Assembly: GCA_023443925.1 (NCBI GenBank)
Contig: JAEZSL010000084.1
Span: 1-35,480 of the forward strand
DNA: 35,480 nt
Direction: 5' to 3'
Origin: Bacillota bacterium
Lineage (GTDB): Bacteria; Bacillota_A; Clostridia; Lachnospirales; Lachnospiraceae
Position 1 is the first letter of the stretch, and each line of letters begins with the position of its first letter. The notes under the pieces were generated by a model. The model was not told the origin of the DNA. It saw nothing but the letters and a program-made list of their open reading frames with translations, and searched no databases. This document shows positions 828 through 20,212 of this stretch, in pieces. The translations under genes were made by a program, and so were the position numbers.

Positions 828-2693
828 ATGAATATAAGGAAAAACTATAAAGTATTAATTACTTTATTTATGACCGTATTACTATTAACGCAAATGTTCA
901 CAAATTGTGTCGTTAATGCAGAAACAAATAAGGATAACCCTGAAAATAGCAGTAATATTATTAAATATATAGACGCTGAGATGAATAATTTAGTCGGCAA
1001 TAAATTAGCAAAGGGCGTTACAGCTTCTATTATTCAAAATAATGAGTTAGTCCTGAGCAAAGGTTATGGTTATTCGGATGAGAAAACTGGCAGGGAGGTA
1101 GATCCAGAAAACACAATTTTTAAAATCGGATCAGTATCAAAGATATTTGTTGCACTTGCGGCTATGCAGCTTAAGGAACAAGGCAAACTTGATTTGAATG
1201 TACCTATAACTCAGTATCTTGAGGCGGATTTCCCAGGATTTAAATACCCTGTAACAATGGAAAATCTGCTTACCCATACGGCCGGCTTTGAGGACCTGTA
1301 CTCACCCCTGGAGGTCAGATTGGAAAGTGAGATTATACCCCTTAAGGATTTTGTCAGAACTGGCATGCCGGAGCAGGTTTTTAAACCGGGTGAGGTTTCT
1401 GCATATTCTAATTATGGGATAGCACTTGCCGGCTATGTGATCGAGAGAATTTCGGGTATTTCCTTTTACGATTATGCCGAAGAAAATATATTTAAGCCAT
1501 TGCAAATGAATCATACAACTTATAAACCAGTTCCAAAAGGTATTATATCAAAAGCTTACAGCCCCAAAGGGGAAGAAAAATCGGATGTGCTGGAGCATTC
1601 GTACCCGGCCGGTTCTGTTACCTCTACGGCAGAGGATATGGCTAAATGTATGAAATTCCTGCTGGATGATGAGGAACAGAGTATTTTAGGAAGCAAGGGA
1701 AAAAAAGAAATGTTTGATAAGCACTTTGCTATGGATCAGGAATGGCCGGGTTACGGATATGTATGGATGAGGCACGAGATCAACGGTCATACTTTTTATG
1801 AACATGGCGGCGGAACTGCTAATTTTGCGTCAGAACTGGTGCTGTTTCCGGAGCAGAAGCTTGGAATATTTATGTCAAGTAATCAAATAAGCAGTTATGA
1901 GCTGGCGGAATATACCTTTGGTGCGGCAGAAATGCTTTACGGAAAGGAATCAAAAAAGCTTGCATATTTAGGCATAAATGACAGGGACATCAGCGGATAT
2001 TACATACCGGCCAGAAGTGTATTTAAAGGTTCGGATAAGTTCGCCAGTTCAATTTTAAATTTGTTATATGGCTTTCCAAAGCATATTACAGGAAATCCGG
2101 TAGATGGATTTGTACTAGATGGAAAAAAACTTATTGCAGCAGGAGAAGATGCATACAGTATCGAGGGGAGTTCTGAATATATAAAGTTTATGCAAAAAGG
2201 GAATCATTTATATTATTCGTCAAAACAATATTACACATCTTGCATCCGTGTACCATGGTATGAAGGCACACAGTGGCAGTTATTTGTAATACTATCGTTT
2301 ATTGTTTTCGGTCTGGTTGGGTTTATTCTGGCTGCTGTTTGTGTAATATCAGGTACCATAAAGAAGAGGGGGCAGTACCCCGTACTGACGCATTTACCTT
2401 ACATGGCAGTGTTCCTTATATTTGTATCCATGGTTATCCGATTTATTTTTTATATGGACTATATGAATAAAGTATTTGGAGATTTGAATTGTTTGGCCGG
2501 TCTGGATGGAGTGATATCTTTTTATAAAGTGGCAGCACCATTGATAGGCATTTCCGGATTGGGTGGGATTGCTTCCACTGTCTTTTTATGGTTACAGCAA
2601 CGCAATATTTTTGTCTGTATGTTTTACTCCATATGGAGTGTAATAGTTGTAATTTTTACATTATGGCTTATTCAATTAAACTTAATCGGATAA
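828..2693 (+). CDS. Beta-lactamase-family (class C-like) serine hydrolase with C-terminal membrane segments
   Basis: The 621-aa product has an N-terminal signal/anchor (residues ~8-30) and a serine beta-lactamase/D-Ala-D-Ala peptidase-type domain (~45-370). The active-site signatures are visible: SVSK at 102-105 (SxxK nucleophile), YSN at 193-195 (YxN), and HGGG at 326-329, in the place of the KTG/HxG motif. A linker is followed by about four hydrophobic segments (~490-615), so the catalytic domain is outside the cell and membrane-tethered at its C-terminus. Relatives include Bacillus PbpE/YbbE-like proteins and esterases of family VIII, so peptidase, esterase or weak beta-lactamase activity are all possible. 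The ATG follows GGGAGG. It is monocistronic, ended by the hairpin at 2777-2806. Confidence 0.9.
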   Translation: MNIRKNYKVLITLFMTVLLLTQMFTNCVVNAETNKDNPENSSNIIKYIDAEMNNLVGNKLAKGVTASIIQNNELVLSKGYGYSDEKTGREVDPENTIFKIGSVSKIFVALAAMQLKEQGKLDLNVPITQYLEADFPGFKYPVTMENLLTHTAGFEDLYSPLEVRLESEIIPLKDFVRTGMPEQVFKPGEVSAYSNYGIALAGYVIERISGISFYDYAEENIFKPLQMNHTTYKPVPKGIISKAYSPKGEEKSDVLEHSYPAGSVTSTAEDMAKCMKFLLDDEEQSILGSKGKKEMFDKHFAMDQEWPGYGYVWMRHEINGHTFYEHGGGTANFASELVLFPEQKLGIFMSSNQISSYELAEYTFGAAEMLYGKESKKLAYLGINDRDISGYYIPARSVFKGSDKFASSILNLLYGFPKHITGNPVDGFVLDGKKLIAAGEDAYSIEGSSEYIKFMQKGNHLYYSSKQYYTSCIRVPWYEGTQWQLFVILSFIVFGLVGFILAAVCVISGTIKKRGQYPVLTHLPYMAVFLIFVSMVIRFIFYMDYMNKVFGDLNCLAGLDGVISFYKVAAPLIGISGLGGIASTVFLWLQQRNIFVCMFYSIWSVIVVIFTLWLIQLNLIG

Positions 2694-5639: not shown

Positions 5640-6104
5640 ATGGGAATTAGCAAACGTGATTATGTTACACAGATGGAGATATACAAAAAGAGCTTATACC
5701 GGGTTGCTTACAGCTATATGAACGATAAAACTCTTGCTCTTGATGCATTGGATGAAGCCCTTTATAAAGGATATATCAACCGGGGCAAGTTAAAGAAAGA
5801 AGAATGTTTTAAAACCTGGCTTACAAGGATTGTCGTAAATGAATGTTTACAGCTGCTGCGCAGGAAAAAACGTGAGGTTTTGATTGACCGGATACCGGAG
5901 GAAGCAGTAGAAGCTTTTGACTCTCTTCCGGTTAGGGAAGCTCTGGGTAAACTTTCGCAGGATCTGGCAAGTATTATCTATCTTCGGTTCTTCGGTGGGT
6001 ATACCCTGGCGGAAACGGCTGCCATTCTAAAGGTGCCACAGGGTACGGTAGCCACAAGAGAACGTAAGGCGCTGGCACTATTAAAACTGGAATTATCGGA
6101 ATGA
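5640..6104 (+). CDS. ECF-type RNA polymerase sigma factor
   Basis: 154 aa, the usual length for an ECF sigma factor. Region 2 covers ~15-65 (LYRVAYSYMNDKTLALDALD, then KTWLTRIVVNECL), and region 4 covers ~95-152 with the helix-turn-helix YTLAETAAILKVPQGTVATR. It redirects RNA polymerase to a small stress regulon. A strong AGGAGG site precedes the ATG. The next gene starts 13 bp after the stop and encodes a DUF4179 membrane protein, the usual partner that holds such sigma factors inactive until an envelope signal arrives. A second such pair lies at 26632-28687. Confidence 0.92.
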   Translation: MGISKRDYVTQMEIYKKSLYRVAYSYMNDKTLALDALDEALYKGYINRGKLKKEECFKTWLTRIVVNECLQLLRRKKREVLIDRIPEEAVEAFDSLPVREALGKLSQDLASIIYLRFFGGYTLAETAAILKVPQGTVATRERKALALLKLELSE

Positions 6105-6117
6105 AGGGGAATAAAAG

Positions 6118-7536
6118 ATGAATGATGATCGTATTACAGAGTATAAAAAATTAATACTGGAAGCAGAGAATTATCCGGATGAATTAGAATTCATAAATAA
6201 CCGACTGCAAAAAAAAATCAGGAAAGGATATAGAAGGCGTTTTATGGCCGGTCTGTGTACTATTGTGGGGGTGGCTTTATTATTTACAGCGGTTGTAAAT
6301 ACACCTACGGTTATTGCCGAGTCCATATACCGAATTCCTGTCATCGGTGATTTGGCGGAGTATGTAAAGTTTGACCGCGGACTGCAAAATGCTGTTAAGA
6401 ACGAATATGTTCAGGAGGTAAATCTGGAACAGGAATCAAACGGTTACACCCTGAAAATGCCCTATGTAATTGCTGACAGTAAGCGCCTTGTGTTGTTCTT
6501 TCAATTACCGGAGAGCATAGTCAGCCGGTCTGATGCAAATGAATACCAGATTGTAATAGGGGACATCGCCTTGGAGAAATTTGATGTAAGAAGTATCAGC
6601 TACCCGCAACTTAAGGGCAAGTTCGCAGCAGGTGTCAGCGGACTGCAAGTTATCAGCATCCGCATGAATGAAACGGCTATACCGCAGGATATAGTTTTAC
6701 CAATATCATTGGTTAAGTTATATAAAGAGATAAGTACCGGGATGGCGGACAATAAACAGGCTGACGAGGGTTCCCTTGTCAATGCAGCGGAATCTGGGGA
6801 AACTATACTGGGATCTTATGAATTCAGTCTTCATCTGAACACCTTTCAGGAGCCCATAACCACGGTTTTAAATTCGGAAATACAGGTGTTAAATGAAACT
6901 GTATTCATACAATCCATTACCGAGTATCCTACGGGTATTGAAATTAAAGTAACGACACCGAATAAGGGGAATGCAATTATAAGTGGTCTGCAATTCAGAG
7001 GAATTGATAAAAAAGGTAATACCTGGGGAGGTCCGGAGGGAACTGGTCCAGCGGTTAATTATAATTATATTGATAACTCCTTAGATTTTAAATATTATCT
7101 GGAAAATGACTATTTTAACAAAGCGTCATTGACTGGCCTGGAGATTATCGGGGTGGGTATGTTTATGAAATCAGATCAGAAGATAACGGTTGACTTACAA
7201 AATCAGACGATGTCACCGGTAATTTCTGACCTAATAATCAAGGATGTCAGGAAAGCGGGAGATAAGGCCGCTGTTACCTTTGAATCAACGGTTGCTGATA
7301 GTATGGATAAGGTTTTAAGAACTTTCGATACGCGTTATGAAGATCTTCATGGTAATGTCTATGATATGACAGATTATCAAAACGGAGCAGGTTATCAAAC
7401 AGCATGGCAGATCAATGATAAAATTTTTTATGAGGTATCTGTAATTTGGCCAGAAGATAATCAAGTGGTTTTAATGAGGAGGGAGGCTCCCGTTATTAAA
7501 CTTGACAACCCGGTTAGTATTTCTTTAAATAAATAA
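6118..7536 (+). CDS. DUF4179-domain membrane protein, probable anti-sigma factor
   Basis: 472 aa: a charged cytoplasmic N-terminus (1-41), one membrane helix (~42-61, FMAGLCTIVGVALLFTAVV), the DUF4179 core just after it (IAESIYRIPVIGDLAEYVKF) and a long extracellular beta-rich domain to the end. Location and topology fit an anti-sigma factor whose outer domain receives a signal and whose inner tail binds the sigma factor. It forms an operon with the ECF sigma gene. No classical zinc-binding anti-sigma motif (HxxxCxxC) is seen in the N-terminus, so the mode of inhibition is open. The ligand is unknown. Confidence 0.85.
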   Translation: MNDDRITEYKKLILEAENYPDELEFINNRLQKKIRKGYRRRFMAGLCTIVGVALLFTAVVNTPTVIAESIYRIPVIGDLAEYVKFDRGLQNAVKNEYVQEVNLEQESNGYTLKMPYVIADSKRLVLFFQLPESIVSRSDANEYQIVIGDIALEKFDVRSISYPQLKGKFAAGVSGLQVISIRMNETAIPQDIVLPISLVKLYKEISTGMADNKQADEGSLVNAAESGETILGSYEFSLHLNTFQEPITTVLNSEIQVLNETVFIQSITEYPTGIEIKVTTPNKGNAIISGLQFRGIDKKGNTWGGPEGTGPAVNYNYIDNSLDFKYYLENDYFNKASLTGLEIIGVGMFMKSDQKITVDLQNQTMSPVISDLIIKDVRKAGDKAAVTFESTVADSMDKVLRTFDTRYEDLHGNVYDMTDYQNGAGYQTAWQINDKIFYEVSVIWPEDNQVVLMRREAPVIKLDNPVSISLNK

Positions 7537-9743: not shown

Positions 9744-9793
9744 TTGACATCCATTATAGACAAGTGTATATTATAAATATAGACAAATGTAGA
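9744..9793 (+). promoter_or_regulatory. Promoter overlapped by two BlaI/MecI-like operators
   Basis: TTGACA (9744-9749), a 17-bp spacer and TATATT (9767-9772). Two near-identical imperfect palindromes, TATAGACAAGTGTATA (9755-9770) and TATAGACAAATGTAGA (9778-9793), are spaced 23 bp apart. The first covers the -10 box, the second the start region. They resemble the TACA-N-TGTA sites of BlaI/MecI repressors, so autorepression is likely. Confidence 0.75.
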
Positions 9794-9813
9794 TCATGTT
9801 AGGAGAATCGAAA

Positions 9814-10272
9814 ATGAAGAAAAAGCACATGAACGAAGATAATGAAACTAGTTTTTACAATCAATCCTCAGAAGAAGCTTTAGAGGTATCAGCTGATTTT
9901 TTAACTAAGCTGCCGGAAGCGGAATTTGAGGTTATGTTAGTGGTTTGGAAAAATACACCTCCTGTAACCACGGTAATACTTATGAATCAACTTGGCATTG
10001 AAAAAGGCTGGAAACTGCAAACTTTAGTTACTCTGTTGAACCGCTTAACCAACCGCGGATTTTTGCGGAGTGAAAAGTTAGGAAAGGAACGTACTTATTA
10101 TCCTTGCGTAAAGCAGGAGGATTATATTCAATTTGAAACAACCCTTTTTGTTAAACGGTATCACCAAAACTCCTTATTTCAATTGGTGAATGCTTTCTCA
10201 GGCAATAACAAACTGAGTAAGGATGAACTAAACGAGTTGAATAACTGGCTGAAAAAGCAAGAGGATGAATAG
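9814..10272 (+). CDS. BlaI/MecI/CopY-family transcriptional repressor
   Basis: 152 aa. ATG 9814 is chosen because AGGAG (9801-9805) precedes it; an in-frame ATG at 9796 lacks a ribosome site and overlaps the operator end. The winged helix has the family signature LPEAEFEVMLVVWKNTPPVT followed by WKLQTLVTLLNRLTNRGFL, and the C-terminal dimerisation helices end near DELNELNNWLKKQ. The N-terminal ~25 polar residues are longer than in most BlaI proteins. Such repressors bind as dimers and are cleaved or released when the membrane protease partner senses its signal. The M56 protease gene starts 2 bp after this stop. Confidence 0.9.
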   Translation: MKKKHMNEDNETSFYNQSSEEALEVSADFLTKLPEAEFEVMLVVWKNTPPVTTVILMNQLGIEKGWKLQTLVTLLNRLTNRGFLRSEKLGKERTYYPCVKQEDYIQFETTLFVKRYHQNSLFQLVNAFSGNNKLSKDELNELNNWLKKQEDE

Positions 10273-10273
10273 T

Positions 10274-11911
10274 ATGGCAGCTATCCTTAGTACCTGTTTT
10301 ATAAATTCTATTAATATGACATTTATAATTATTATAATGGTTTTGCTGATGCCGCTGTTAAAAAAATATTTATCTTCGGTTTGTATATACCGTCTTTGGG
10401 TGATTGTTCTAATTGGATTATTAATACCAATACGTTTTGGCACCAATACGGCTTTAGTTTACATTGGCACGCTCCAGATAACTGCTGAAGATAAAACACA
10501 TCCGGATATTCAGGCAAGCAATGCATCCAATTATGGAATGAAGCACTATAACCTGGAAAAGCAACTGACTCCGGATAAGCAGGCACAGATCAGCCGGCAA
10601 GGAAGCTGGTATTATTTTATTAAAACAATGATAACTGCGAAACTCTCAAATATTGTTCAATATAAATACTTGTTTTTAGTCTGGGGCTTTACAGCATTCG
10701 TCCTGATGGCAGTAAAGAGCATTGGATACCTGGTATACCGGAAACGGCTGAAAAGATTTGTAAGACCTGTTATTAAGGAAAACATATTAAAGGAATATAG
10801 CCGTTGTTTTCTGGAATTACATAGCAACAACAGAATGGGACTTTTTCAGCATAATAAAATATTATTATATACAAGTCCTGTAATTACCAGCCCCATATCA
10901 ATTGGTATTTTAAAACCAGCTATTTTATTACCGGATGAATCCTACACGGATAAAGAGATATATTTTATCCTCAAGCATGAGCTAATCCATATATTAAGAA
11001 GAGATTCTTTGATTAAAGCAATACAGCTAATCGTGCTGGCTCTTAACTGGTATAATCCATTTTGTTATGTATTGGCCAGATATTTGGAGGAATGGTGTGA
11101 AGCTTCCTGTGATGAACAGGTTCTTCGTAATGCGGACAGAACGGATCGCTTCGGGTATGGCAAGCTGCTTTTGAAGTACGCTGAAACTAAAACATATATG
11201 CCATCTGCGATTAATTTAATGGGAGGAAATAATATGAAAAACAGATTGAAGTCTATCATAGAGCATAGAAAAAAGCATTCCGGCATAATACCGGTGGTGC
11301 TGCTGCTCTGTATTGTATTTACTATGGTAATTGTATCTTCTCGCAGTCATACTGATTCTCTGGCTGCCGAGGTTACAATAACAGAGGAGAAGGAACCTAT
11401 GATGCCGCTGGAGGAAACAGGGGATAGCCAGGAAGATAAGAGTGAATCCTCCTTAGCAAATAACAGTGGTCCAATCAACAAGGATATATCAGAGAAAGAA
11501 ACGGAAATTTCGGAACCGAATGCAGCAGACACTTTATCTGACGGGGTATCCGGTGAAGATATCGTCGAATATGCAAAGCAAGCAGTTGGCAGCCCCTATT
11601 TATGGGGAGGAAATGATCTTGATACCGGAGTTGATGCCAGCGGATTTACACAAGTAATCTATGGAAAGTTTGGTTATTCGCTTCCCAGGACATCCAGGGA
11701 GCAGGCGGTGGAGTGCACAGAGGTTTCAATGGATTCTCTTAAGCCCGGTGATTTGGTTTTTTATCCGGGCATAGAAGAGAATAAGGCGGATCATGTTGGA
11801 ATCTATATTGGAGAGTATAAGATTATCCATGCAAAGAATTCACGGGACGGCGTGGTTATTCAAGATATCAATTACCGGACACCGATAAGTGCAGGCAGGG
11901 TTATACAATAA
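10274..11911 (+). CDS. BlaR1-like M56 metalloprotease fused to an NlpC/P60 domain with Ala replacing the catalytic Cys
   Basis: 545 aa from ATG 10274; GAGG at 10261-10264 gives proper spacing, whereas ATG 10265 abuts it. Membrane helices lie at ~14-29, 41-56 and 132-150. The M56 zinc-protease domain carries HELIH at 235-239, then EASCDEQVL near 276. A fourth helix is at ~337-356. A Ser/Glu-rich linker follows, and residues ~428-545 are an NlpC/P60 domain: YAKQAVGSPYLWGGNDLDTG, VDASGF, KPGDLVFY, DHVGIYIG (His507) and IIHAKN (His519). The catalytic Cys of the DCSGF motif is Ala455 (codon GCC, two base changes from a Cys codon). By BlaR1 topology the domain is extracellular, in the place of the penicillin-binding sensor. 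Inference: it binds peptidoglycan fragments and triggers cleavage of the adjacent repressor. Confidence 0.88.
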   Translation: MAAILSTCFINSINMTFIIIIMVLLMPLLKKYLSSVCIYRLWVIVLIGLLIPIRFGTNTALVYIGTLQITAEDKTHPDIQASNASNYGMKHYNLEKQLTPDKQAQISRQGSWYYFIKTMITAKLSNIVQYKYLFLVWGFTAFVLMAVKSIGYLVYRKRLKRFVRPVIKENILKEYSRCFLELHSNNRMGLFQHNKILLYTSPVITSPISIGILKPAILLPDESYTDKEIYFILKHELIHILRRDSLIKAIQLIVLALNWYNPFCYVLARYLEEWCEASCDEQVLRNADRTDRFGYGKLLLKYAETKTYMPSAINLMGGNNMKNRLKSIIEHRKKHSGIIPVVLLLCIVFTMVIVSSRSHTDSLAAEVTITEEKEPMMPLEETGDSQEDKSESSLANNSGPINKDISEKETEISEPNAADTLSDGVSGEDIVEYAKQAVGSPYLWGGNDLDTGVDASGFTQVIYGKFGYSLPRTSREQAVECTEVSMDSLKPGDLVFYPGIEENKADHVGIYIGEYKIIHAKNSRDGVVIQDINYRTPISAGRVIQ

Positions 11912-11983: not shown

Positions 11984-12514
11984 ATGGTTGTCTTTCATGG
12001 TTCTCCGGTTGCAGGGATTAAGATTTTTACACCACGTATTTCAACCCATGGCAAACCCGTAATCTATGCTTCCGATAGAATGGATGCTGTTTTATTGTAT
12101 TGTGCTAAATGGAATGATTTTATGCTGACCTGTGGTTCGGAGGAAGTTGTTGTAGAGCGTTATAAAGGAGCTTTCGATGAGTTATATAAAGACAAGAAGG
12201 GTTATATTTATATTTTAGATGGAACAACATTTCAATTCGATGAGTATTGCAATGAGTTAGTTTCAGAAAAAACTGTAGAAGTTATTGATTGTATTACCAT
12301 AAATAATCTATATGAAGTTGTTATGGCAAAATATACGGTTTATCTTTATCCCAATAAACCGCAGTGGATTACAGACGATGACGGAGATATCGTAGAGCAT
12401 GCTATAGAGATATACAAAATGAGTGGAGATTTTGGTATTTTTAATTATATATATGAGAGGTATCCAAAACTTGATAAACAAATTAAGAATGCGATGATAG
12501 ACATTATAAAATAA
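11984..12514 (+). CDS. Hypothetical protein, possibly with an ADP-ribosyltransferase-like fold
   Basis: 176 aa with a strong AGGAGGG ribosome site. The N-terminus MVVFHGSPVAGIKIFTPR followed by GKPVIYASDRMDAVLLYCA resembles proteins beginning with a HGSP motif, a strand-loop seen in ART/KptA-like NAD-binding folds; I cannot confirm this without a profile search. No signal peptide or membrane helix is visible, so it is probably cytoplasmic. It lies 73 bp after the M56 gene beyond a hairpin and may or may not be cotranscribed. Possible roles include NAD-dependent modification or toxin-like activity, both speculative. Confidence 0.7.
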   Translation: MVVFHGSPVAGIKIFTPRISTHGKPVIYASDRMDAVLLYCAKWNDFMLTCGSEEVVVERYKGAFDELYKDKKGYIYILDGTTFQFDEYCNELVSEKTVEVIDCITINNLYEVVMAKYTVYLYPNKPQWITDDDGDIVEHAIEIYKMSGDFGIFNYIYERYPKLDKQIKNAMIDIIK

Positions 12515-12704: not shown

Positions 12705-13292
12705 CTACCAGCTTATATCAAAGTCATATTCTTCAACAGTAACTTTTCCTACTGCATACCCTGATATAGTTTTAAAATTTACATTCTCAGGCATTGTTTT
12801 TCCATCTGCCCAATTAGTACACCTAAAAAATAAAGGCCCCCCTCCCATTGCCTGATATACTGTATATACCATTCCTTTTGATGCTTTATAAGCAGCATTT
12901 ATACCTGTGTTAAAAGAATCCTCTATGATTGCTGCATATATATCATATAAAACAAAAGCTCCTCCAACTAAGGGAGTAAGGTCTACACCAAATTTTTTCA
13001 GAATTTCTTTAGCTACTACAGTAGTTAAAGCTTGAGAACCATATTCCTCAAGATACTCTTTTAAACCATCCGTCGGAAGATCAGCATTATGAAATGCTTT
13101 TACCATACTGTATGGAATATAAGTGATTTTAACTGGAATGTCTGTAAATGAGAGTGATTCAGAAGTTTTAAAATCCGTTACTCTCCAGGTTCCACCTTTG
13201 GTACTTGAGGCTGCAAACGAAGTTATTGAACTACTAAAACCGAGTGCCACTACTAACGTAAATGCTAGTAAAATTTTACTAATGTGTTTCAT
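12705..13292 (-). CDS. Secreted protein of unknown function
   Basis: 195 aa. A clear signal peptide (KILLAFTLVVALGF, ending near SFAA at 26-28) indicates export. The mature part has a beta-like start (GTWRVTDF), a central hydrophobic Gly-rich stretch (~103-123, VDLTPLVGGAFVLYDIYAAI) and a short C-terminus ending DFDISW; only one Cys (158). I do not recognise the family. The GAAAGGGG site precedes the ATG, and TATAAT on the minus strand at 13334-13329 is a plausible -10. It is divergent from a LytTR regulator gene and very AT-rich. The layout resembles small secreted effector or peptide-antibiotic loci regulated by LytTR proteins, but nothing in the protein proves that. Confidence 0.75.
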   Translation of the reverse strand: MKHISKILLAFTLVVALGFSSSITSFAASSTKGGTWRVTDFKTSESLSFTDIPVKITYIPYSMVKAFHNADLPTDGLKEYLEEYGSQALTTVVAKEILKKFGVDLTPLVGGAFVLYDIYAAIIEDSFNTGINAAYKASKGMVYTVYQAMGGGPLFFRCTNWADGKTMPENVNFKTISGYAVGKVTVEEYDFDISW

Positions 13293-17561: not shown

Positions 17562-17954
17562 GTGAATAATAAAATAAAAAAATTAGGAGATGCAGAATTA
17601 GAAATCATGATGGTTCTATGGAGCAGCACCCAGCCGGTTACGTCGGGATATATCTTAGAACAGCTCAAGGAAAAGCGCAGCTGGGCTTTATCAACGTTAA
17701 TGACCTCCCTTGCCAGATTGTCCGATAAAGAATTCATATTTTGCGACAGAGCCACACGTTCTAATTTATATTCTGCAATTATAACAGAGAATGAATATAA
17801 AGCACAGGAAAGCAAGTCCTTTTTAGCTAAACTTTACGGAAATTCACTTCAAAGTCTGGTAACCAATCTGTACAGTAACAAGGTTATAGATCAGGCCGAT
17901 TTAAAAGAGCTGCAGGAATATCTTAAGGATTTGGAGGAGGAGAATAAGGTATGA
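17562..17954 (+). CDS. BlaI/MecI-family transcriptional repressor (second copy)
   Basis: 130 aa from GTG 17562, with AGGAGAG upstream. The winged helix shows the family pattern LGDAELEIMMVLWSSTQPVT and WALSTLMTSLARLSDKEFI, and the C-terminal dimerisation part ends LKELQEYLKDLEEE. Length is typical of BlaI. It is a paralogue of the repressor at 9814 but without the polar N-terminal extension. The M56 protease gene overlaps its stop by 4 bp (ATGA), so the two are translationally coupled. It likely represses its own operon through the ATTATAC repeats. Confidence 0.9.
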   Translation: MNNKIKKLGDAELEIMMVLWSSTQPVTSGYILEQLKEKRSWALSTLMTSLARLSDKEFIFCDRATRSNLYSAIITENEYKAQESKSFLAKLYGNSLQSLVTNLYSNKVIDQADLKELQEYLKDLEEENKV

Positions 17955-20212
17955 TTGATACATTATTCGCAGCCATATTTGAGGTTTCACTAACAACCGG
18001 TTTAGTTATTCTAATTATTAAGTCGCTATCCTTTACGATCAACAAAAACTATGCCGCAAAGTGGAAAAAGTATATATGGCTGATAATAGCCGCCAGGCTT
18101 TTAATACCGGTCAACTTTTCCTTTTTAGGAGCCCCGGTCCAGCTGAATATACTAAATAACAGCAATTCAAACTATGAGCTTACTGCATCTTCAAATGGCA
18201 TGAATTCCATCAGAGTACAAAGTAAAACAACTGATATTACTGCCGAAAAAGAAGATAACGGAGAGACCCGAAACAAAAACACAGGACCGGATACACTTAC
18301 CAGTAAAAATCGAAGCCATTCAATTCCGTGGATGAATTTTGCTGTTTATATATGGGCAGCCGGGGTGATTATATTCATAATGTACCATCTGATTGGATAT
18401 GCATATTTTAGAAAACAGGTCCTGTGCTGGAGCAGGGTTGTAAAAGAACAGAGAACACTGGATATAGCTAGAGAAATAAGCAATCATTTAGCTTTGAAAA
18501 AAAGACTGAGACTTTACGTATGTGACAAAATAGTGAGCCCGTCCCTGATCGGCTTTATAAATCCGATGCTGGTAATACCTCCCCATAATTATACCGATAA
18601 GGACCTCACATTTATACTGGAACATGAACTTACACATTACCGTTTGAAGGATCTTTGGTATAAACTGTTTATACTTCTTGCCAATGCAGTTCATTGGTTT
18701 AATCCCGCCGCTTATGTGCTTCGTCATGAGGCTTATAATGATTTGGAACTTGCCTGTGATGACGAGGTAATTAAGAATATGTCCGCAGATGACAGGAATA
18801 AATATGCAAAAACAATTCTTTCCTGCATTCAGCAGCAGAAGATGCGGAATGTAGCCTTAATAACCAGTTTTAATAATCCGGTAAAAATCTTAAAAGACAG
18901 ATTGAGAAATATAGTAAGCCGAAAGAAAAAGCGTAACGGCTTGATTATAATTTTTATTTCCCTGATTCTGGTGACCGGGATTGGAGCTTTGTTTACCTTT
19001 AATGGCAGAGTACAAAAGAAGCAGGATATACAGGGATTCACCTGGTATGGTGCAGTCAGTTTAATTCCGGAAAAGACAGAATTACCGGATAAGCTGATTA
19101 TAAACAGTGATATGTGGAACGAATTCTTAGATAGTGATGCTACAGTTGCATTGGTCGCAGCTATACCGCAAGCAGATATTAATGTGTATGGATTGAAAGA
19201 AAATGGTGTGGAAGAAGGAACTTATACCCTGCGGGGAATTTTGGTGAAACAGGGTAATGAAATTCAGGTACTGGATACGGGCTGGGGTGTTTATGAAGAG
19301 TTACCAGAGATCAGGTACCAGGATTATGATGGTGACAATGTCAATGAAATTGCATTGATTGTAAGAAGTGCAAGCGGGACAGAGCTGTCTGTTAATGATT
19401 TACATATATTAAAGAAAGAACCGGCCGGCGGGTGGAAGGATTACTTATTTGACTCCTCTGCCTGGCAGGAAATGATAAAACAGCGAATGGATTACCAGGT
19501 TAAAGACGGGATCTTAACTATTTCGATTGATGGGAAGGATACCGGATATTACATTGATCTTACACCTTATGAAGAAGAGTGGGGAGATAAACTAACTTCC
19601 GTCTTTTTTGGAAACTATGGTCTATTTCATTTTGACAATGGTGAGATAGCACTGCAGGTACTTCCGGCTGCCAATGTGGGAAATTGGGCCACTCCACAGG
19701 TCATTACCGATACTTATATCCATATGAAAGTAACTTTTCGTGGCCAGTTTGACTTGGTCAGTGAATTTAAAGAAAATAAAAATACAGAGGAAGTTCCCGA
19801 GGCATATCCGAACCCCAGGGAAGAAACCGGCACCGGTGAGGAAGAACCGGAGACCGGTACGGATAAAGACTTGCAGGAATTTCTGGATAGTCCGGATGGG
19901 AATCTCCTTAAGGAAACCGCTGAGAACTTTGTAAAGGCTTATTTTCTGGGCGAGAAAGAAACTGCCCGGGGCTTTCTATCGGAGGAGGCTGATCCTGACA
20001 ATTGTGTTTATCTGGATTCGGCGGGAGTGGCCGGGAATGTTTATGATAAATTAACTCACCTTGTGGCAAAATGGTATACGGCAGATGGCAACATAGCAAA
20101 TGTGCAATATGAATACAGCCTGGAAGGAGAGGATACCTTCACCTATCTTAACCTGGACTTTAAAAAAGACGGAAGCAACTGGGTAATTGAAGGTGTATAT
20201 CTGGAAAAGTAA
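17951..20212 (+). CDS. BlaR1-like M56 metalloprotease with a large non-PBP extracellular region
   Basis: 753 aa. Helices lie at ~9-27, 41-56, 129-148 and 329-347. The M56 catalytic motif HELTH is at 225-229, followed by ELACDDEV near 266-273. After the fourth helix the ~400-residue outer part does not contain the SxxK/KTG motifs of a penicillin sensor. It has a beta-rich portion with an Asp-rich DYDGDNVNEIAL motif (possibly calcium-binding, FG-GAP-like), then a Pro/Glu/Thr-rich linker (~620-645) and a C-terminal ~100-residue domain (LLKETAENFVKAYFLGE... NWVIEGVYLEK) resembling NTF2/DUF4829-type small domains. It should cleave or release the preceding repressor when its signal, not obviously a beta-lactam, is sensed. 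Confidence 0.87.
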   Translation: MIDTLFAAIFEVSLTTGLVILIIKSLSFTINKNYAAKWKKYIWLIIAARLLIPVNFSFLGAPVQLNILNNSNSNYELTASSNGMNSIRVQSKTTDITAEKEDNGETRNKNTGPDTLTSKNRSHSIPWMNFAVYIWAAGVIIFIMYHLIGYAYFRKQVLCWSRVVKEQRTLDIAREISNHLALKKRLRLYVCDKIVSPSLIGFINPMLVIPPHNYTDKDLTFILEHELTHYRLKDLWYKLFILLANAVHWFNPAAYVLRHEAYNDLELACDDEVIKNMSADDRNKYAKTILSCIQQQKMRNVALITSFNNPVKILKDRLRNIVSRKKKRNGLIIIFISLILVTGIGALFTFNGRVQKKQDIQGFTWYGAVSLIPEKTELPDKLIINSDMWNEFLDSDATVALVAAIPQADINVYGLKENGVEEGTYTLRGILVKQGNEIQVLDTGWGVYEELPEIRYQDYDGDNVNEIALIVRSASGTELSVNDLHILKKEPAGGWKDYLFDSSAWQEMIKQRMDYQVKDGILTISIDGKDTGYYIDLTPYEEEWGDKLTSVFFGNYGLFHFDNGEIALQVLPAANVGNWATPQVITDTYIHMKVTFRGQFDLVSEFKENKNTEEVPEAYPNPREETGTGEEEPETGTDKDLQEFLDSPDGNLLKETAENFVKAYFLGEKETARGFLSEEADPDNCVYLDSAGVAGNVYDKLTHLVAKWYTADGNIANVQYEYSLEGEDTFTYLNLDFKKDGSNWVIEGVYLEK

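What the first reader, a model, noticed from the sequence alone, without database searches (positions are those of the whole stretch)
10274..11911. BlaR1-type protease whose sensor is a catalytically dead NlpC/P60 domain
Residues 428-545 are a clear NlpC/P60 domain attached after the fourth membrane helix of an M56 protease, where classical BlaR1 has its penicillin-binding sensor. The catalytic Cys of the DCSGF motif is Ala (VDASGF), a two-base change, while both His residues and the fold motifs remain. A dead cell-wall peptidase is a natural peptidoglycan-fragment binding module. With the adjacent BlaI-type repressor and its twin operators this would be a sensing system for cell-wall fragments, not beta-lactams. 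The architecture is read from sequence; the ligand is inference, and I do not know whether this fusion has been described.
Basis: partly seen in the sequence, partly recalled or inferred. Interest (0 to 1): 0.78.

Follow-up and report, generated by a model that had tools for sequence, protein, structure and literature searches.

The report
Membrane protease with dead-hydrolase sensor
Some bacteria of the Lachnospiraceae carry a BlaR1-like membrane protease whose outer part is a cell-wall-cutting enzyme that has usually lost its cutting residue but kept its binding pocket, so it may sense pieces of cell wall rather than penicillin.

Summary
Window 10265-11911 encodes an M56 (BlaR1-type) membrane protease fused after its fourth helix to an NlpC/P60 domain whose catalytic Cys is Ala (codon 11636-11638). 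It is not one damaged copy: of 58 NlpC/P60 domains from M56 fusions, 43 lack the Cys (34 Ser, 7 Ala, 2 Thr), against 0 of 96 stand-alone relatives. The protease motif HExxH is kept in 54 of 54 fusions long enough to show it. In the 37 non-Cys domains scored by alignment, both active-site His and the gamma-D-Glu pocket are almost invariant. Tree and codons indicate repeated loss. A BlaI-type repressor lies upstream, with twin operators 23-24 bp apart at a fixed distance from TTGACA in 7 of 7 loci. Exact sites elsewhere in six genomes were no more than a reversed-pattern control, so autoregulation is the only output seen. Best explanation: a receptor that reads peptidoglycan stem peptides with a dead hydrolase and relays through BlaI. 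Ligand, signalling and target genes are inferred; 15 of 58 domains keep Cys.

The parts
9744..9772 (+). promoter of the blaI-m56 operon: -35 TTGACA (9744-9749), -10 TATATT (9767-9772), spacer 17
   Evidence: consensus scan (11 of 12; the number of such sites in the region, 17, is not above the shuffle mean 16.6); -35 box at the same distance from operator 1 in 7 of 7 loci
9755..9774 (+). operator 1 (core TAGACAAGTGTA 9757-9768), overlapping spacer and -10
   Evidence: site present in 7 of 7 loci
9778..9797 (+). operator 2 (core TAGACAAATGTA 9780-9791), just downstream of the -10
   Evidence: site present in 7 of 7 loci
9814..10272 (+). BlaI/MecI-type repressor gene (ORF from 9796; 9814 is the likelier start)
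   Evidence: PF03965 E 6.6e-24; MecI (1sd6) E 2.5e-12; ribosome site read directly
10265..11911 (+). M56 protease - NlpC/P60 fusion gene
10307..11254 (+). Peptidase_M56 (BlaR1-type) membrane protease region
10976..10990 (+). HELIH zinc-protease motif (residues 235-239)
   Evidence: alignment; HExxH in 54 of 54 fusions long enough to show it
11282..11338 (+). fourth membrane helix (residues 337-355)
   Evidence: hydropathy
11342..11542 (+). linker (residues 357-423), probably disordered
   Evidence: pLDDT below 50; 22.5% mean pairwise identity for 359-424
11546..11908 (+). NlpC/P60 sensor domain (residues 425-545; Pfam match 11588-11872)
11636..11638 (+). codon 455 GCC = Ala in place of the catalytic Cys
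11792..11830 (+). stretch from retained active-site His507 (11792-11794) to His519 (11828-11830)
   Evidence: both His in 51 of 51 fusion domains

Best explanation
It is an autoregulated BlaI/BlaR1-type signalling operon in which the penicillin-binding sensor is replaced by an extracytoplasmic NlpC/P60 domain that has become a pseudo-hydrolase. Proposed mechanism: the dead domain holds peptidoglycan stem peptides through its gamma-D-Glu (S1) pocket without cutting them; binding is relayed through the linker and helix 4 to the cytoplasmic M56 protease, which leads to inactivation of BlaI and release of the twin operators over the operon promoter. Shown by sequence: architecture, loss of the nucleophile, retained pocket residues, intact protease motif, conserved operators. 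Inferred: extracytoplasmic placement (by BlaR1 homology), ligand, signal relay, repressor inactivation, autoregulation as such, target genes.
Against: 15 of 58 fusion domains keep Cys, so catalysis is not always lost, and the direction of each change on the tree is unsettled (some Cys may be regained). High conservation of the domain is not special to non-Cys members: in the 12 Cys rows it is also the top segment (54.7%). P0149-P0153 of the second family have also changed the Ser after the catalytic position. No target gene outside the operon was found. A kept pocket is not proof of binding. No dN/dS could be computed: DNA of close relatives was not held.
Confidence: 0.6

Rival explanations
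1. The domain is still a working hydrolase in the Ser (and Cys) members, using Ser as a weak nucleophile or a relocated Cys; sensing is a by-product of, or depends on, cutting.
For: 15 of 58 members keep Cys; both His are invariant in 51 of 51. A second Cys at position 481 occurs in 31 of 51 fusion domains and in 0 of 96 stand-alone relatives.
Against: 7 members have Ala at 455. Cys481 is no commoner when Cys455 is lost: 22 of 37 non-Cys against 9 of 14 Cys members; 15 of 37 non-Cys members have no Cys there.
Confidence: 0.12
2. The dead domain binds something else: a protein partner (an inhibitor or hydrolase), an antibiotic, or a different wall polymer.
For: No ligand was tested. Some positions are uniform in fusions but not in stand-alone relatives: Asn522 51 of 51 against 38 of 96, and position 481, so another surface may have been selected.
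Against: The residues that hold gamma-D-Glu in YkfC are nearly all kept in non-Cys members.
Confidence: 0.2
3. The domain is a decaying relic or spacer with no sensing role.
For: The catalytic residue is gone in 43 of 58.
Against: It is the most conserved segment in the 32 non-Cys rows, and the other active-site residues are kept in nearly all of 37.
Confidence: 0.05

Closest known systems
BlaR1/MecR1 - BlaI/MecI systems (S. aureus, B. licheniformis)
   Same: M56 membrane zinc protease with four helices, C-terminal domain after helix 4, adjacent BlaI-type repressor with operators over the promoter
   Different: no penicillin-binding sensor domain matched; an NlpC/P60 domain instead; no operator seen before another gene in the window; NCBIfam BlaR1 model far below cut-off (97.4 of 400 bits)
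RipD (Rv1566c) of Mycobacterium tuberculosis, non-catalytic peptidoglycan-binding NlpC/P60
   Different: RipD has Ala-Ser-Glu in place of the triad (review passages); here both His stay, and the domain is fused to a signalling protease
YkfC and SH3-NlpC/P60 gamma-D-glutamyl endopeptidases
   Same: fold and gamma-D-Glu pocket residues; the nearest stand-alone relatives listed carry SH3 domains at about 48-55% identity
   Different: catalytic Cys lost; the position of YkfC Asp256 (free L-Ala amine) is Thr in 34 of 37 non-Cys domains, so a free N-terminal L-Ala is not predicted to be needed
M56 proteins with other wall-related domains (LCP fusions L125, L126 found here; M23 proteins with an M56 domain mentioned in PMC9662197)
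   Same: M56 protease joined to a wall-enzyme-type domain
   Different: different domain; state of their catalytic sites not tested

Membership tests
BlaR1/MecR1 antibiotic sensor | M56 protease region with HExxH | tested here: met
BlaR1/MecR1 antibiotic sensor | four membrane helices with a domain after the fourth | tested here: met
   hydropathy; model
BlaR1/MecR1 antibiotic sensor | adjacent BlaI/MecI repressor and operator-like sites | tested here: met
BlaR1/MecR1 antibiotic sensor | C-terminal penicillin-binding sensor domain | tested here: not met
   only M56 and NLPC_P60 matched at E<=0.001
BlaR1/MecR1 antibiotic sensor | NCBIfam equivalog cut-off | tested here: not met
   97.4 bits against 400
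BlaR1/MecR1 antibiotic sensor | induction by beta-lactams and inactivation of the repressor | not testable with these tools
   needs experiment
NlpC/P60 (C40) cysteine peptidase | NlpC/P60 fold | tested here: met
NlpC/P60 (C40) cysteine peptidase | catalytic Cys in DCSG | tested here: not met
   Ala455
NlpC/P60 (C40) cysteine peptidase | active-site His pair | tested here: met
   His507, His519
Non-catalytic peptidoglycan-binding NlpC/P60 (RipD type) | nucleophile lost, fold kept | tested here: met
Non-catalytic peptidoglycan-binding NlpC/P60 (RipD type) | binds peptidoglycan | not testable with these tools
   pocket conservation only

The most novel reading that the evidence does not exclude
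A group of Clostridial receptors repeatedly turned a gamma-D-glutamyl endopeptidase domain into a dead ligand-binding sensor, so that a BlaR1-type protease reads natural peptidoglycan stem peptides. This would be the outside counterpart of the gamma-D-Glu-diamino acid signal reported to act on BlaI in the cytoplasm, and would make drug sensing by BlaR1 one special case of wall sensing by M56 receptors.
Probability: 0.45. Interest if true: 0.82.

Novelty: new variant of a known kind. Interest (0 to 1): 0.64.

Why it matters
BlaR1/MecR1 are known as beta-lactam receptors, but none of the five M56 proteins scanned whole with Pfam here (two in the window, L123, L125, L126) has a penicillin-binding domain, so other M56-BlaI pairs must answer other signals. 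Here the likely signal can be read from the sensor: a wall-peptide pocket whose cutting residue was lost more than once. That makes 'do M56 receptors sense peptidoglycan turnover?' directly testable with one small domain, with natural Cys, Ser and Ala versions to compare, and it is a case of recurrent pseudo-enzyme formation tied to a change of role from enzyme to receptor.

Tried and rejected
Single damaged copy: rejected. Migrated nucleophile at Cys481: not supported. Wider regulon: TATAGACAARTGTA with up to one mismatch gave 6, 8 and 7 hits in three genomes against 10, 14 and 21 for the reversed-pattern control. Exact TAGACAANTGTA in six genomes gave 21 sites against 31 for the reversed control: 11 at the fusion operons, 10 elsewhere. 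Of these 10, 7 lie inside open frames of 100 aa or more; 3 lie between genes, each a single site: L150 (before another blaI-M56 pair in G409), L162 (G409, about 50 bp before a gene that reads like a glycosidase; name recalled from its sequence, not searched) and L163 (G414, some 370 bp before the next same-strand frame). Conserved neighbourhood beyond blaI: none seen by eye at the window, L001, L091, L092, L119, L120, L121 (only about 1.5 kb of flank for most). The window's second BlaI-M56 pair (17562-20212) and the beta-lactamase-family gene at 828-2693 have no such site upstream. Independent origin of the two fusion families: the M56 parts form two groups with unfused M56 between them (with a long-branch warning for the second family), but the NlpC/P60 parts do not reject one clade (p-AU 0.452) and do not hold the first family together either, so it stays open. 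Window organism: not identified; no whole genome is held. Paper searches used 'NlpC P60', which cannot match 'NlpC/P60', so their zeros say nothing; the informative ones are M56+NlpC+BlaI: 0 papers; BlaR1+NlpC: 2 papers; passages seen, none on this fusion. Searches were seen as listings, apart from the papers named in the report.

Rows: the 51 domains are the 50 proteins plus genes of G408 and G409, less P0142 (no NlpC/P60 domain); 5 are partial proteins (P0012, P0138-P0141). P0146 belongs to both the 51 and the family of 8. G414's gene (L121, Ser) is in neither. One search's pattern count gave 93 of 96 Cys; the aligned column gives 96 of 96. Left out: 7 of 52 rows in the tree (P0138-P0142, P0012, P0145); one search used 30 chosen fusion proteins and dropped 14 repeated or partial loci (47 rows of 61); one search used 31 fusions and every second stand-alone protein (48 of 96, plus P0154-P0156). 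Lists were capped: one search shows 120 of 548, one search scored only 7994 candidates, one search kept 80 loci.

Full report

Not a single damaged copy. A domain search gave 24 proteins that carry both Pfam domains among the 120 hits listed. A profile search gave 49 proteins at E<=1e-60, 47 of them listed with both domains. Together these are 50 proteins; with two genes from genomes G408 and G409, and without P0142, which has no NlpC/P60 domain, there are 51 domains: Ser 28, Cys 14, Ala 7, Thr 2 at the catalytic position. In the 96 stand-alone relatives listed the same column is Cys in 96 of 96. A search from the most distant fusion, P0146, found seven more of its kind; of these 8 proteins 2 have Cys and 6 Ser. 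P0146 is also one of the 51, so the total is 58 domains: Cys 15, Ser 34, Ala 7, Thr 2 (recounted). By contrast HExxH of the M56 protease is kept in 54 of 54 fusions long enough to show it; four fragments are too short.

The change recurs. On a maximum-likelihood tree of 45 fusions, with the catalytic residue masked and rooted on P0146 (a very long branch), Cys against non-Cys needs 9 changes, at least 5 forced by strongly supported branches. The direction of each change is not settled; some Cys may be regained from Ser. Codons help: where DNA is held, Ser is TCG (L119), TCT (L120) and AGT (L121), Cys is TGC (L001, L091, L092) and Ala GCC (window). TCN and AGY serine are not one base apart; they connect through Cys or Thr, so at least two separate origins of Ser are likely (inference). 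The window's Ala clade (P0001-P0005) groups with Ser members, as expected for Cys to Ser to Ala; the other Ala member in the tree, P0008, sits beside a Cys member, P0023 (97/75).

The binding site stays. [quoted passage not shown] The window has Y442, W444, D454, S456, S474, A455, H507, H519 (mapping from the alignment to 3h41). In the 37 non-Cys domains these are Tyr 35 (Phe 2), Trp 37, Asp 37, Ser 36, Ser 34, His 37, His 37, and Arg472 37. A combined pocket criterion (Tyr; Trp, Tyr or Phe; Asp; Ser; Ser, Thr or Ala) is met by 33 of 37 non-Cys, 9 of 14 Cys and 84 of 96 stand-alone domains. Against this reading, P0149-P0153 of the second family have changed the Ser after the catalytic position. 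YkfC's Asp256, which holds a free L-Ala amine, is Thr in 34 of 37, so a free N-terminal L-Ala is not expected to be needed. Among 32 non-Cys rows the domain is the best-conserved segment of the protein: 62.0% mean pairwise identity, helices 1-2 60.1, protease 53.0, linker 22.5; the 12 Cys rows show the same order (54.7, 54.2, 44.4, 14.4), so loss of Cys has not loosened the domain, but high conservation is not special to the dead forms. Conservation is a proxy; dN/dS could not be done.

Regulation. A BlaI/MecI-type repressor gene abuts the fusion (8 bases of overlap if the fusion starts at 10265); the neighbours of the fusions in L001 and L121 are of the same Pfam family. Two near-identical sites, TAGACAAGTGTA and TAGACAAATGTA, lie 23 bp apart over the promoter, the first between -35 and -10. 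The same pair, spaced 23 or 24 bp, with the first core starting 13 bases after the start of TTGACA, is found at 7 of 7 fusion loci with DNA held (window, L001, L091, L092, L119, L120, L121), Cys and non-Cys alike. Exact copies of TAGACAANTGTA in the six other genomes number 21, against 31 for the reversed pattern: 11 at the operons, 7 inside open frames, 3 between genes, one of these before another blaI-M56 pair. So autoregulation is the only output visible, and the regulated response is the main gap.

How common. Fusions were read in 3 of 15 genomes of the genus of G001 (Anaerocolumna sedimenticola) and 3 of 34 of the genus of G003 (a Herbinix MAG), where 3 further genomes matched with the M56 part only. 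A sample of 397 genomes of G001's family gave only G001 itself at E<=1e-70, and 395 relatives of G438 gave only the same three genomes as at E<=1e-90. It looks rare and patchy in Lachnospiraceae. The window's own organism is not identified.

Mechanism. I take the dead domain to be a ligand-binding sensor for stem peptides, relayed by M56 proteolysis to BlaI as in BlaR1. Amoroso 2012 (PMC3305447; abstract and the section on the mechanism of induction) reports that a dipeptide from wall turnover, gamma-D-Glu with a diamino acid, binds BlaI/MecI in the cytoplasm; that the present receptor reads the same chemistry from outside is my inference. RipD is the precedent for a non-catalytic, peptidoglycan-binding NlpC/P60 domain (PMC12067865, passages; PDB title). 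The nearest stand-alone relatives listed are SH3-NlpC/P60 proteins at about 48-55% identity, so the sensor was probably recruited from a wall hydrolase (inference).

Novelty. The searched open-access library has no paper with M56, NlpC and BlaI together, and in the two with BlaR1 and NlpC the passages found do not describe the fusion; most subscription papers are not held. Databases already show the architecture as precomputed Pfam domains, under names such as 'cell wall-associated NlpC family hydrolase' or 'peptidase BlaR1', which would mislead for the non-Cys members. I rate it a new variant of a known kind.

Noticed in passing
L125 2-1687 (-), L126 763-2778 (-): M56 proteins fused to an LCP (LytR_cpsA_psr, PF03816, E 4.1e-28 and 3.5e-34) domain, each with a BlaI-type gene just upstream (PF03965 E 3.3e-29 and 3.1e-30); another wall-enzyme domain in the sensor position.
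   Followed up: partly
window 17562-20212 (+): Second BlaI-M56 pair in the window: Penicillinase_R E 1.3e-28 and Peptidase_M56 E 4.8e-50, with a different, unassigned C-terminal part and no match to the twin operators.
   Followed up: partly
window 828-2693 (+): Large PF00144 beta-lactamase-family (serine hydrolase) protein; no fusion-type operator upstream.
   Followed up: partly
window 5640-7536 (+): ECF-type sigma factor gene followed by a DUF4179 protein, perhaps a sigma/anti-sigma pair; fusion loci in G438 and G439 also lie near genes that read like sigma factors, not clearly the same ones.
   Followed up: no
window 11714-11716 (residue 481): Cys in 31 of 51 fusion domains where stand-alone relatives have Gly in 90 of 96; not linked to loss of the catalytic Cys. 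Meaning unknown.
   Followed up: partly
L162 1501-1512 (G409) and L163 1501-1512 (G414): Single exact copies of the operator core between genes, away from any blaI seen in the 3 kb held; chance or real targets not decided.
   Followed up: partly
window 12705-13292 (-) and 11984-12514 (+): Two proteins without any Pfam match beside the operon; the first begins with a signal-peptide-like stretch.
   Followed up: no
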